Below are positions 1 to 4,718 of a stretch of DNA of 64,000 bases, one piece after another (position 1 is the stretch's first letter; each line of letters starts with the position of its first letter). Location: positions 1 to 64,000 of the forward strand of contig BJGQ01000007.1 of NCBI GenBank assembly GCA_014190575.1, written 5' to 3'. Below the pieces are notes generated by a model. It did no database searches and was not told where the DNA came from. It worked only from the letters and a program-made list of their open reading frames with translations. The stretch is from Bacteroidota bacterium (lineage in GTDB: Bacteria; Bacteroidota; Bacteroidia; Chitinophagales; UBA10324). Made by a program: the position numbers and the translations under genes.

Positions 1-137
1 TAAATTCAAAAGCAAGCGCAGAAATGTATGCTTTGGATATTCGCCGGGCATTGGATTACCTTGGCGAGATAACAGGTGAAATTACGAATGAAGATTTGCT
101 CGATAATATTTTCTCCCGGTTTTGTATTGGAAAGTAG
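1..137 (+). CDS. mnmE: tRNA uridine-5-carboxymethylaminomethyl(34) synthesis GTPase MnmE, C-terminal end only (5' truncated by window edge)
   Basis: Frame 3 reads ...[44 protein letters not shown]; the C-terminal IFSRFCIGK motif is characteristic of MnmE. Confidence 0.9.
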
Positions 138-159: not shown

Positions 160-525
160 TTACTTTTTTGAATATGATAAATCAACTCCAGTAAAATCAG
201 CGCAGGTCAAATCGGTGCCGGATAAAATTGTAAATTTCAGAATTGCATTAACCAATACAGCACCCTCAATATCGGCATTTGTAAGATCGGCATTTGAAAG
301 ATTGGCACCCGTTAATTGTGTTCCTTTCAAATAAGCACCTCTAAGCTTGGCGTTTGAAAGATCAGCCCCGCATAAATTTGCATTTGAAAGATCAGCCCCG
401 TTTAAATTTGCTCCTTTTAAGTTTACATTATCAAGTTGCAAACCTTTTAAGTCGCACCAACTTAAATCAATTTCTCCAATAGAACCTAAGTTGATATATT
501 CCTTGATTTTTTCTAATGGAGTCAT
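160..525 (-). CDS. pentapeptide repeat protein
   Basis: 121 aa with tandem A(D/N)LXX repeats (ANLNGADLSNANLCGADLSNAKLRGAYLKG...). Confidence 0.9.
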   Translation of the reverse strand: MTPLEKIKEYINLGSIGEIDLSWCDLKGLQLDNVNLKGANLNGADLSNANLCGADLSNAKLRGAYLKGTQLTGANLSNADLTNADIEGAVLVNAILKFTILSGTDLTCADFTGVDLSYSKK

Positions 526-685
526 TTTATCTATCTAAGATGCCAAGTGATTATTAAATTTAGAAGTCAGATTATAATTGCTCAAATCGAAAATTAATTT
601 TATTAATATTGTTTACTGATAAGAAAATTAAAAATAATAATTGAACTCATAAATAATTTATAAATGATTTTTAAATCAGTTTAAA

Positions 686-1069
686 ATGTCAGTAATAAAA
701 AAATCAGAAGCAATATTTTTTTTAGCTACTTCAATGGGAAAGGCTGATGGTGAATTATCAATTGATGAAATTAAAAGTGCGTTCTCAATTCCAATATTTG
801 CGGCGATTTGCAATGATGTGGATGAAACTGAAATTTCTGTAAAAATAAAATCTGGTAAACTTAATATCGATTCAGCTATGGCAATTTTAAAACAATTATC
901 AAAAAACGATCGGCTTGAAGCAATGGTTGTTTGTTACAGTGTTGGCATTTCTGATAATGTTATAACTACAGGCGAAAAAGAGTTATTAGATAAACTATGT
1001 GTTGAATTTGGATTTGATAATCTGAATGAAGTTATTGATAGATATAAGGAGTTAAATAAAAAAAATTAA
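686..1069 (+). CDS. small TerB-like / hypothetical protein
   Basis: 127 aa helical protein (SMGKADGELSIDEIKSAF...ITTGEKELLDKLCVEFGF) resembling TerB-type domains; weak recognition. Confidence 0.55.
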   Translation: MSVIKKSEAIFFLATSMGKADGELSIDEIKSAFSIPIFAAICNDVDETEISVKIKSGKLNIDSAMAILKQLSKNDRLEAMVVCYSVGISDNVITTGEKELLDKLCVEFGFDNLNEVIDRYKELNKKN

Positions 1070-1110: not shown

Positions 1111-2022
1111 TCAATCGTGCGGAGTGTTTTCCATCACCTTAAAAATATGTAGTAGGTAAGGAAACAATGCATCCATGCTTTCTTGTGCACCACGAGTAGA
1201 ACCTGGCAATGCAAGTATTAGTGAATTACCTTTTAATCCTGCGATGCTTCGCGATAACATAGCATAAGGCATTTGTTGTTGTCCATAATTTCTTGCGGCC
1301 TCTGCTATACCTGGAATTTCTCTGTCGAGCATTGGACGAATGGCTTCGGGAGTTACATCTCGCTTTGATAAACCCGTGCCACCAGTGAGTATAATTAAAT
1401 CAAGTTTGCTTTCGTAAAGTGATTGAACTTTTTCCTGGATAATTTTTACTTCATCAACAATTATAGAATAATCGTCAATGGATGTATTGAATTTTTTCAG
1501 TTTCTCAATTATTGCTTTACCTGCAAAGTCTTGTTTTTTTCCGGCTGAAATACTATCAGAACAAACCACTACTGCAGTTTTTATTGTTCTGCTGAGTGTA
1601 TCGTTGTACTGTGATTTACCTCCTTTTTTCTTCAGCAATTTTATACCAACGATTTCAATTTCTTTATCAATTGGTTTTAGCATATCGTAAATTGTTAAAG
1701 CCACCACTGAGGCACCGTGCATGGCTTCCACTTCCACTCCTGTTTTATAAATCGTGTGAACTTCTGTTTCAATAATTATTTCGAGCCCTTCAATTTTATG
1801 AGTGACTGCCGCAAACTCAACAGGCAGCGGATGACAATCCGGAATCATGTCACTCGTTTTTTTAATGGCGAACAAACCTGCTATACGACTTGCTTCCAAC
1901 ACATCACCTTTCGGAACAGTTTTATTTTTTACAGCATCAATAGTTTCCTGCTTGCTCACTTTTACAATTGCTTGTGCTATTGCGGTTCGATGAGTAAATA
2001 TTTTTTTTGTGATGTCAATCAT
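1111..2022 (-). CDS. moaCB: bifunctional molybdenum cofactor biosynthesis protein MoaC/MoaB
   Basis: MoaC half (SDMIPDCHPLPVEF, EVEAMHGASVVALTIYDMLKPIDK) fused to MoaB half (LILTGGTGLSKRDVTPEAIRPMLDREIPGIAEAAR). Confidence 0.9.
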   Translation of the reverse strand: MIDITKKIFTHRTAIAQAIVKVSKQETIDAVKNKTVPKGDVLEASRIAGLFAIKKTSDMIPDCHPLPVEFAAVTHKIEGLEIIIETEVHTIYKTGVEVEAMHGASVVALTIYDMLKPIDKEIEIVGIKLLKKKGGKSQYNDTLSRTIKTAVVVCSDSISAGKKQDFAGKAIIEKLKKFNTSIDDYSIIVDEVKIIQEKVQSLYESKLDLIILTGGTGLSKRDVTPEAIRPMLDREIPGIAEAARNYGQQQMPYAMLSRSIAGLKGNSLILALPGSTRGAQESMDALFPYLLHIFKVMENTPHD

Positions 2023-2246
2023 GCTTTAAAATGATTTATTGAACTTTTTAATAGGAATGCGAAGAAAGATATTCAGAATTAAATTCAACCGATATATTTA
2101 ACCACATTAAAAATATAACATGGCACACTGGACACTTGAAAACATTTCACCAGCAAAAATTTCTATCAGACCAGAAGAATGTGGAAATTATTTTGAGATA
2201 ACCTTCACATTGAAATACCACAATAATCCATTGGGAGTGGGGCAAT

Positions 2247-2300
2247 TTCTTGAGCAATCGCTGTCCGGTGAGTGAATACTTTATTGGTGATGTCGATCAT
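2247..2300 (-). pseudogene. moaC N-terminal relic (about 18 codons)
   Basis: Minus strand reads MIDITNKVFTHRTAIAQEIA, near-identical to the moaCB N-terminus MIDITKKIFTHRTAIAQAIV, then similarity stops abruptly. Confidence 0.8.
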
Positions 2301-2410
2301 AATTTATAAATGATTTTTGGAATTGATGTATTCAACTGCGAATAAAACTATTTTTAAATAATATATATTTTTTTAAATTTTGCTTGCTTAAAGCAAAAAC
2401 TCATTCAACA

Positions 2411-3307
2411 ATGAAACCATTAAAAATTAATAAAGACCTTTTAGATTATTATGGAGTAGATGGACCACCTCCAGAAACGCCAATACAAGATATGATTCAA
2501 GTAATTGCAATGCGAACCTCAATGGCCTTAGGAGGGGCAGTAGCTACAAAACCTAATCGTGCTAAGGATCAACATCTTAGTTCTTTATGGAAAATAGATC
2601 CAATCAGTCCTGCTCTTTCAGCAAAATATCTTGCCGATGCCTTTGACTATGGCACGCCAAAGGACGGGAGTGTTTTTTGGAGTAGTGTTGATAAAAACAA
2701 AGTAGTTACTGAAGTAAGAAAAATGAACAAGGCTGCCGGCAAGATAAAATTTGGTTCCCTTGAATCTACAACAGATGCACGCTTTGTTGATGGAGCATTT
2801 AAATACGAAGCTGGTGTAAACAAAGATTTCTGGAAACTTGCATCTGCAAAATATGGTGAGGGAGCTTTAGGTCATGTCACAGTATTTCAAGTATTTGGAC
2901 TAAAAGAAGATACTATTTTTTGGAAAGATGAATTTCCTGAGGTGTTGAATGGAATGAATAAGAAACTATCCGTAGGTGTGACTCCTGATGTTTGCGATAT
3001 AACAATTGCAGTTATTAATCCAGTAAATTGGCCTTCATTAAAAGTTAAATTGTATACTAATGCTGATATATGTAGGATACCAATTGTGGTATCAAAAAAT
3101 TTAGGAAAAGATAAAAATGGATGGGACATTCGTCCAACAAAAAGAGAGGAAGTCAAAATGACAAAAACTGTAGGGTCTGGGAAAATACCAATAACAGTTC
3201 GTAATTATTGGGAGCAAAAGGGAACTGTTTTACATAGTGCCGCCGCTCGTGAAGTTGAGTCGAATCCTAGATCTGTTGTGTATGATAGTTTTTTACCATT
3301 TATGTAA
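2411..3307 (+). CDS. hypothetical protein, possible orphan polymorphic-toxin-like domain
   Basis: Intact ORF; the ORF track starts at 2384 on a non-ATG codon, with the first ATG at 2411. Pattern VFWSS...KIKFGSLESTT...FWKLASAKYGEGALGHVTVFQVFGLKEDTIFWKDEFPEVL resembles C-terminal toxin domains by eye only. Confidence 0.5.
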   Translation: MKPLKINKDLLDYYGVDGPPPETPIQDMIQVIAMRTSMALGGAVATKPNRAKDQHLSSLWKIDPISPALSAKYLADAFDYGTPKDGSVFWSSVDKNKVVTEVRKMNKAAGKIKFGSLESTTDARFVDGAFKYEAGVNKDFWKLASAKYGEGALGHVTVFQVFGLKEDTIFWKDEFPEVLNGMNKKLSVGVTPDVCDITIAVINPVNWPSLKVKLYTNADICRIPIVVSKNLGKDKNGWDIRPTKREEVKMTKTVGSGKIPITVRNYWEQKGTVLHSAAAREVESNPRSVVYDSFLPFM

Positions 3308-3604
3308 GAAATCAGAATTTTCAGTTTTTATGGTTCCTTTTAAAAAAACATAAAAGTTGTAAAAAACGATTGAATAAACTATAGCTTATAAATTTAAGAA
3401 GTCACTGAATCAATAACCATATTGAGTTTTAATATTAATATTTTCTGTTGCTTCGTCGGACAAAATGGAAAATAAATCGACAATGTTAAATGAATAGTTT
3501 GATGATTACTATTAGTAAATTTTGGGAAATATAATCCTAAATGGGTTTTGTTATTTTAAACAATGCATTTTATTTTAAAATCGGAGACTTAAATCTGCGC
3601 CTTT

Positions 3605-3763
3605 GCATTTTTTTTTAAACTACCTAACTTTTGTGGATGTTTATATAACAACTTTTTACTCCGGTCACATAGCTTTAATGCCATGCAAGTCAGTGGTGGT
3701 ATTATTTAGTAGCATTTCAAAGAAATGGAATGTCGCACTGAGAATTCCTGGTTTTACTTCATC
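3605..3763 (-). pseudogene. decayed copy of formate dehydrogenase / molybdopterin oxidoreductase C-terminus
   Basis: Minus strand reads DEVKPGILSATFHFFEMLLNNTTTDLHGIKAM*PE*KVVI*, aligning to DEVKPGILSTTFHFPEVLLNIITSDEHDSEAMCPEYKVVAV of the 4037-4315 fragment, with three in-frame stops. Confidence 0.8.
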
Positions 3764-3777
3764 AAATATTATTGAAT

Positions 3778-3936
3778 TTATATTATAATAATTAACTGAA
3801 TTAATTCTTTGAATACATCGACTTTCGAAACTTTAATATTGATATGGATATCAATAATTTCCTTCTTGTTTATTTTAACAATTTGTGAATCTATTTCTGC
3901 TCGGTGAGTGAATTTTTTATTGGTGATGTCGATCAT
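3778..3936 (-). pseudogene. moaC N-terminal relic (about 50 codons, diverged)
   Basis: Minus strand reads MIDITNKKFTHRAEIDSQIVKINKKEIIDIHINIKVSKVDVFKELIQLI..., aligning with moaCB MIDITKKIFTHRTAIAQAIVKVSKQETIDAVKNKTVPKGDVLEASRIAGL; it lacks the catalytic region. Confidence 0.75.
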
Positions 3937-3961
3937 GATTGAATTTGATTAAAGAAAAGAA

Positions 3962-4030
3962 TGAGGTCATTCCGAAGAATGAGGAATCTGATATTAAAAA
4001 CAGAAATGCTTCCTTCGTCAGCTTGACAAT
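3962..4030. repeat. possible degraded dispersed intergenic repeat (gtcattccgaagaatgaggaatctgat...)
   Basis: Non-coding; resembles 'GTCATTCCGA..GAGGAATCT' intergenic repeats seen in Bacteroidota; only one copy noticed in this window. Confidence 0.3.
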
Positions 4031-4036
4031 GGATGC

Positions 4037-4315
4037 TTAAACTTTCACCGGTACATTTTGCTTTTTAAAACTTCCTTTGCTTTTACGGATGTTTACGGCC
4101 ACTACTTTGTATTCGGGGCACATAGCTTCACTATCGTGTTCATCGCTTGTAATAATGTTTAGCAACACCTCAGGAAAATGGAAAGTGGTGCTGAGAATTC
4201 CTGGTTTTACTTCATCAGTAATTCTCGCTTTGATATCCACTTTACCACGAGGTGATTCCACACAAACCATATCGCCTTCGTTGATTAAATTTTTATTCGC
4301 ATCAACGCACTTGCT
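4037..4315 (-). pseudogene. formate dehydrogenase alpha subunit / molybdopterin-dinucleotide-binding C-terminal fragment
   Basis: ...VDANKNLINEGDMVCVESPRGKVDIKARITDEVKPGILSTTFHFPEVLLNIITSDEHDSEAMCPEYKVVAVNIRKSKG matches the C-terminal domain of molybdopterin oxidoreductases; the N-terminal bulk of about 600 or more residues is absent. Confidence 0.85.
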
Positions 4316-4331
4316 TTTTTTCTCTTATCGG

Positions 4332-4718
4332 TTATTTTTTTCTTGATCCAAAAAATAAAAATATCCAACCAGCTATAAAACACAATCCGCCAATTGGAGT
4401 AATTGGACCAGCCCATTTATAATTTACCAGACCTGTAATTTCATGTGTGCTGATTAAATACAAAGAACCTGAGAAAAAGACTACCCCAATTGTAAAGCAT
4501 ATTCCTGCCCATTGAAAAAATTTATTCTGGGAGTCTTTAATCAATATGCCGACAATGAATAATCCTAGTGCATGATAAAACTGATATCGAACACCGGTTT
4601 CGAATGTGCTTAAAAGTTCAGGAGATAATTTCTCTTTTAAAATATGTGCACCGAAGGCACCGAGTATCACCGCAATTGCTGCAAGAATAGATGCAGTAGA
4701 GAAAAATGTTCGTTGCAT
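4332..4718 (-). CDS. DUF423 family small membrane protein
   Basis: 128 aa, four hydrophobic segments, LGAFGAHILKEKLSPELLSTFETGVRYQFYHALGLF typical of DUF423/YgdD. Confidence 0.88.
   Translation of the reverse strand: MQRTFFSTASILAAIAVILGAFGAHILKEKLSPELLSTFETGVRYQFYHALGLFIVGILIKDSQNKFFQWAGICFTIGVVFFSGSLYLISTHEITGLVNYKWAGPITPIGGLCFIAGWIFLFFGSRKK

What the first reader, a model, noticed from the sequence alone, without database searches (positions are those of the whole stretch)
2240..4320. Tandemly duplicated, decaying fdhA-3'/moaC-5' fragments beside an intact moaCB
On the minus strand, two copies of a molybdopterin-oxidoreductase C-terminus (4315-4037, nearly intact; 3763-3605, with three in-frame stops) and two copies of the MoaC N-terminus (3936-3778, diverged; 2300-2247, about 18 codons) alternate upstream of the intact moaCB (2022-1111). 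The order fdhA' - moaC' - fdhA' - [ORF] - moaC' - moaCB implies repeated tandem duplication of the fdhA/moaC junction, followed by deletion of the molybdoenzyme. It may record loss of a formate dehydrogenase while the cofactor gene was kept. None of the relics is labelled by the ORF track.
Basis: partly seen in the sequence, partly recalled or inferred. Interest (0 to 1): 0.72.

Follow-up and report, generated by a model that had tools for sequence, protein, structure and literature searches.

The report
Gene scraps where an operon split
The decaying gene scraps next to moaCB are real leftovers of duplications at the point where a formate-dehydrogenase operon was split by a chromosome rearrangement, but the enzyme was not lost: its gene sits elsewhere in the same genome.

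Summary
In detail: two fdhA 3' tails and two moaC 5' heads alternate upstream of an intact moaCB, far above chance. The tandem duplication is supported. A moaC'|fdhA' fusion with an identical filler of about 39 bp recurs on another contig of the same genome (C33), after a near-complete fdhA.

The inferred loss of formate dehydrogenase is wrong. C9 carries moaA-moeA-mobA-moaD-moaE-fhs-fdhD-fdhB, and C33 carries fdhA.

The cause is a rearrangement. Relative G011 keeps MFS-mnmE-moaCB-fdhA-fdhB together and, separately, DUF423 beside a PorE-like OmpA gene, an adjacency also found in three other genera. Here those two adjacencies are exchanged: mnmE...moaCB now runs into DUF423 and fdhA runs into the PorE-like gene. 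Duplicated fdhA-tail/moaC-head pieces lie at both new joints. This resembles DNA duplication associated with inversion; the inversion itself could not be shown on draft contigs.

Opposite-strand genes of unknown function sit between tail and head (ORF298 in the window, ORF242 on C33, ORF238 in G015), so the junction may be a recurrent insertion slot. This is an ordinary mechanism with well-preserved detail; interest is modest.

The parts
3..137 (+). 3' end of mnmE; the window's contig C7 overlaps the end of contig C6 by exactly 127 bp here. Ancestral neighbour of moaCB (as in G011).
   Evidence: G011 order
160..525 (-). pentapeptide-repeat gene, inserted between mnmE and moaCB relative to G011
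   Evidence: Pfam; G011 has mnmE directly beside moaCB
686..1069 (+). TerB-like gene (match below the Pfam cut-off), also extra relative to G011
   Evidence: E=1.3e-4, 22.7 bits vs cut-off 24.4
1111..2022 (-). intact moaCB (MoaC + MoaB-like domain); the only MoaC match in this genome
2120..2257 (+). fragment: N-terminal 46 codons of an ORF242-like gene, opposite strand to moaCB; its joint with moaCB is homologous to the ORF242/moaC' joint on C33
   Evidence: (78% over 364 bp)
2247..2300 (-). relic moaC2', about 18 codons of the MoaC N-terminus; upstream DNA also homologous
2411..3307 (+). ORF298 (307 aa if started at TTG 2384): orphan protein on the opposite strand between fdhA2' and moaC2'; coding-like; no relative found in 399 genomes of the order; weak ADP-ribosyl-cyclase match (E=0.044, below cut-off)
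3605..3768 (-). relic fdhA2', about the last 60 codons of fdhA, with stops
3769..3807 (-). filler of about 39 bp at the moaC1'|fdhA2' fusion, identical to the filler at the corresponding joint on C33
3808..3936 (-). relic moaC1', first ~43 codons of moaC
3937..4036 (-). fdhA-moaC intergenic, colinear with that of G013 (part of a 490-bp ungapped match at 85.7%)
4037..4315 (-). relic fdhA1', last ~90 codons of fdhA, cut at its 5' side
4316..4331 (.). rearrangement joint: remnant after the DUF423 stop codon; the terminator-like repeat and the PorE-like gene that follow in G011/G012/G014 are missing
4332..4718 (-). DUF423 gene; normally next to the PorE/OmpA-like gene, which here lies on C33 after a second fdhA tail

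Best explanation
The relics are the scar of a genome rearrangement that cut a formate-dehydrogenase/molybdenum-cofactor operon between its last two genes, fdhA and moaCB. Inferred history: (1) the ancestor had ...fdhB-fdhA-moaCB followed by mnmE, as G011 does; (2) opposite-strand genes entered the fdhA/moaCB gap; (3) a tandem duplication running from the last ~65 codons of fdhA to the first ~43 codons of moaC made an array that kept a whole fdhA at one end and a whole moaCB at the other, with useless moaC'|fdhA' fusions inside that decayed; (4) an exchange of ends, most simply an inversion, between this array and the gap between DUF423 and the PorE-like gene put moaCB (with three unit remnants) next to DUF423 and fdhA (with one and a half units) next to the PorE-like gene. 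Formate dehydrogenase was not lost. Shown: both joints, the shared fusion joint, retained fdhA, the ancestral adjacencies in relatives. Inferred: the order of steps, inversion rather than another exchange, fdhB-fdhA adjacency across the C9/C33 gap.
For: C33 reads fdhA > ORF242 < moaC'|fdhA' | PorE-like. The moaC'|fdhA' fusion matches between C33 and the window over 332 bp at 81%, with an identical filler. The moaC relics form one clade, support 97/96. G011 holds MFS-mnmE-moaCB-fdhA-fdhB-fdhD-fhs-moaE-mobA intact, and DUF423 beside the PorE-like gene. That adjacency is also in G012, G014 and in G003, G004, G005, G007, G010 from three other genera. C6 and C7 overlap by 127 bp in mnmE, so MFS-mnmE-moaCB is contiguous here. 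C9 carries moaA, moeA, TSUP, mobA, moaD, moaE, fhs, fdhD and fdhB up to its end. On G011 coordinates C9's end and C33's start lie 559 bp apart in the same orientation. DnaG on C33 is single-copy, so C33 is not an obvious contaminant.
Against: The C9-C33 join is not assembled, and C33 has a 568-bp N run inside fdhA plus a missing start, so an intact fdhA is not fully seen. fdhA1' is closer to G014's fdhA (93.3% nt) than to the fdhA on C33 (88.6%), which a purely internal duplication does not predict without gene conversion or import from relatives; the fdhA-tail tree is too short to decide. Contigs do not show whether the exchanged segment is inverted. No reads were available.
Confidence: 0.75

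Rival explanations
1. Loss of formate dehydrogenase with retention of the cofactor gene: fdhA was deleted and only its tails remain.
For: The window itself has only fdhA tails upstream of moaCB.
Against: fdhA on C33 with no stops in the visible part and 99% aa identity to G011 over residues 29-647; fdhB, fdhD, fhs and the other cofactor genes on C9.
Confidence: 0.04
2. Exchange slot: the fdhA/moaC gap is a site where relatives keep different opposite-strand genes; DNA fragments fdhA'-cargo-moaC' from sister species recombine through their shared flanks, and failed replacements leave arrays of partial flanks. The rearrangement came later.
For: Three unrelated cargo proteins at this junction: ORF298, ORF242, and ORF238 in G015. 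Flanks have mixed affinities: fdhA1' to G014, its intergenic to G013. fdh genes are 82-95% identical between species while several other genes are 70-86%.
Against: moaC relics form one clade (97/96) and share one fusion joint, which points to internal copying. G015's insertion has no flank duplication. Four of five same-genus relatives have no cargo there.
Confidence: 0.2
3. Two strains co-assembled: C33 is a variant allele of the locus from another strain in the metagenome bin, so the genome never had two arrays.
For: The contigs break within mnmE, fdhB and fdhA, as strain variation would cause; contamination estimate 2.04%.
Against: DnaG on C33 is single-copy; C33's PorE-like gene and the window's DUF423 each occur once in this genome; DUF423's ancestral neighbour is present only on C33.
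Confidence: 0.1

Closest known systems
[quoted passage not shown] Furuta et al. 2011 PNAS, pmcid PMC3029772, known here through PMC8963470, PMC3120642, PMC4671568)
   Same: Breakpoint pieces (fdhA tail to moaC head) are present at both new joints of an exchange between two distant loci, leaving broken gene parts.
   Different: Inverted orientation not shown on contigs; extra tandem moaC'|fdhA' fusions and inserted opposite-strand genes are present, which the plain mechanism does not need. The original paper was not read.
Plain tandem duplication by illegitimate recombination followed by pseudogene decay (general knowledge)
   Same: One fusion joint (gene B start | gene A end) with whole genes kept at both outer ends.
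   Different: The array was also split between two loci by a rearrangement.
Formate dehydrogenase (FdhA/FdhB with FdhD) plus molybdenum-cofactor operon with formate-tetrahydrofolate ligase
   Same: Gene content of C9/C33 and of G011, G012, G014.
   Different: moaCB separated from fdhA here; fdhA-moaCB separated from fdhB in G013 and G015.

Membership tests
Duplication associated with inversion (DDAI) | Two ancestral adjacencies exchanged partners | tested here: met
   mnmE-moaCB|fdhA and DUF423|PorE-like in G011; exchanged in G000
Duplication associated with inversion (DDAI) | The same segment present at both new joints | tested here: met
   fdhA tail...moaC head on both C7 and C33
Duplication associated with inversion (DDAI) | Segment between the joints is inverted | not testable with these tools
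   Draft assembly of 91 contigs
Tandem duplication array | Repeated B'|A' fusion joint | tested here: met
   moaC'|fdhA' joint on C7 and C33 with the same ~39-bp filler
Tandem duplication array | Copies inside one genome are each other's closest relatives | tested here: inconclusive
   moaC relics: clade 97/96; fdhA tails unresolved, AU p=0.246 for one clade
Loss of formate dehydrogenase | No fdhA elsewhere in the genome | tested here: not met
   fdhA on C33
Pseudogenes | Neutral substitution pattern and stops | tested here: met
   moaC1' vs moaCB 9/14/17, C33 moaC' vs moaC1' 6/6/6; stops in fdhA2'

The most novel reading that the evidence does not exclude
The fdhA/moaCB gap is a cargo slot in this genus: unrelated opposite-strand genes are swapped in through the conserved fdhA tail and moaC head, and the window records accumulated, partly failed swaps (ORF242-like, ORF298, none) beside an independent occupied slot in G015 (ORF238).
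Probability: 0.2. Interest if true: 0.45.

Novelty: new member of a known kind. Interest (0 to 1): 0.3.

Why it matters
It corrects a tempting reading: gene tails beside a cofactor gene do not mean the pathway is gone. It also gives a base-level record of how an operon is cut in two while every gene stays whole, because the duplication kept one intact gene at each end before the split. If the cargo-slot reading holds, it would be a small example of gene capture at an operon junction.

Tried and rejected
Loss of formate dehydrogenase: rejected by C33 and C9. A simple insertion of an fdhA-moaCB island between DUF423 and the PorE-like gene: disfavoured, because moaCB keeps its G011-like neighbours mnmE and MFS. 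Contamination by C33: not supported. Identity of the cargo proteins: Pfam, NCBIfam, PHROGs and PADLOC gave nothing above cut-off. ORF298 had no relatives in plasmids, phages, viral contigs, genome contigs or 399 genomes of the order. ORF242 had none in genome contigs and only weak partial plasmid matches. A single-sequence structure model of ORF298 was useless (pLDDT 31), so no fold search was run. PDB matches of ORF298 to fused RecA constructs are artefacts of summing repeats. A -7-like promoter scan upstream of moaCB found nothing.

Full report
Observation. The minus strand of the window carries, in sense order, DUF423 (4718-4332), an fdhA tail (4315-4037), a moaC head (3936-~3808), a second fdhA tail (~3768-3605), an opposite-strand ORF (2411-3307), a short moaC head (2300-2247), a fragment of another opposite-strand gene (2120-2257), and intact moaCB (2022-1111). 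Self-comparison gives E-values of 6e-24 for the two fdhA tails, 9e-20 for moaC1' against moaCB and 5e-16 for moaC2' against moaCB. Pfam finds the molybdopterin dinucleotide binding domain in the first tail at 6.7e-15. Shuffled controls are far below. The relics decay neutrally.

Is formate dehydrogenase lost? No. The genome (G000, 91 contigs) has one molybdopterin oxidoreductase match, on contig C33, which starts inside fdhA at about residue 29 and is open apart from a 568-bp run of N. Contig C9 carries moaA, moeA, a TSUP-type transporter gene, mobA, moaD, moaE, fhs, fdhD and fdhB, and ends inside fdhB (names for the orthologous genes of G011; the TSUP name is a reading of the sequence and was not tested). 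On the coordinates of the relative G011, the end of C9 and the start of C33 are 559 bp apart in the same direction, so fdhB-fdhA are probably still adjacent; this join is inferred.

What relatives look like. Five other species of the genus are held. G011, G012 and G014 have the whole operon ending ...fdhB-fdhA-moaCB, with fdhA and moaCB 15-100 bp apart. G013 and G015 keep fdhA-moaCB as a pair away from fdhB; G015 has an opposite-strand ORF (ORF238) between them. In G011 moaCB is next to mnmE and an MFS gene (both names are readings of the sequence). In the window's genome the same neighbours remain: contig C6 ends MFS-mnmE and overlaps the start of C7 by exactly 127 bp.

The rearrangement. In G011, G012 and G014 the DUF423 gene lies directly beside a PorE/OmpA-like gene, and the same adjacency is present in G003, G004, G005, G007 and G010 from three other genera of the family. 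It is therefore ancestral. In G000 it is broken: DUF423 abuts fdhA1' on C7, and the PorE-like gene abuts another fdhA tail on C33. C33 reads fdhA > ORF242 < moaC'|fdhA' | PorE-like. Two old adjacencies, moaCB-fdhA and DUF423-PorE-like, have thus exchanged partners. On one circular chromosome that is most simply an inversion, which contigs cannot show. The DUF423-PorE-like gap is also broken in G013 and G015 with other partners, so it may break often.

The duplication. The moaC'|fdhA' fusion on C33 and the one in the window match over 332 bp at 81% and share an identical filler of about 39 bp; they are copies of one event. The moaC relics form a clade apart from working moaC genes (97/96), so the fused piece had decayed for some time before it was copied. 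A tandem duplication from the fdhA tail to the moaC head leaves whole genes at both ends, so it costs nothing and can decay freely. The ORF242-like fragment beside moaCB and ORF242 beside moaC' on C33 share their joint with moaC (78% over 364 bp), so an ORF242-type gene was already between fdhA and moaCB before copying. The first unit in the window instead has the cargo-free G013-type intergenic. fdhA1' is closest to G014 (93.3% nt) and not to the C33 fdhA (88.6%); the fdhA-tail tree cannot decide between internal copying and import.

The opposite-strand genes. ORF298 (window), ORF242 (C33) and ORF238 (G015) have coding-like codon use in the expected frame and are unrelated to each other. None has a family above cut-off. 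ORF242 has a 37% relative in G011 on contig C199. ORF298 has no relative in 399 genomes of the order and only a weak, below-cut-off match to ADP-ribosyl cyclase. Their function is open.

Comparison. Exchange of adjacencies with duplicated breakpoint DNA is the pattern called DNA duplication associated with inversion, reported for Helicobacter pylori by Furuta et al. (2011), cited in PMC8963470, PMC3120642 and PMC4671568. Two defining features were tested and met; inversion could not be tested. The finding is a new, detailed case of a known kind of event, not a new system.

Limits. The assembly is a draft with a 2.04% contamination estimate, no reads were available, and contig breaks in mnmE, fdhB and fdhA hint at strain variation. 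A single-copy DnaG on C33 argues against contamination.

Noticed in passing
window 160-1069: A pentapeptide-repeat gene and a TerB-like gene sit between mnmE and moaCB; G011 has mnmE directly beside moaCB.
   Followed up: partly
window 2411-3307: Orphan ORF298 with a weak ADP-ribosyl-cyclase match (E=0.044), opposite strand, no relatives found.
   Followed up: yes
L010:7726-8442: In G015 an unrelated opposite-strand ORF238 lies between fdhA and moaCB, without flank duplication.
   Followed up: partly
L010:8566-11376 and L014:2913-5729: G015 and G013 FdhA carry an extra N-terminal ~24 residues (MAD...TNGAAPK..VVTTAFIN) and are detached from fdhB.
   Followed up: no
L108 (G014:C1:326000-331558) and L011: In G014 moaA-moeA and an ORF164 lie beside mnmE while TSUP...moaCB is on another contig (C13), so the operon has moved as a block in that lineage.
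   Followed up: partly
L078:3706-5272: Two extra ORFs (135 and 385 aa) are inserted between fhs and fdhD in the G015 operon.
   Followed up: no
L016:1859-2426: A 568-base run of N inside fdhA on C33, of the length expected from relatives; origin unknown (scaffold gap or masked).
   Followed up: no
L016, L080, L017: The fdh/cofactor operon genes are 82-95% identical in DNA across most of these species, while DUF423, ORF883 and the PorE-like gene are 70-84%; may reflect constraint or exchange between species.
   Followed up: partly
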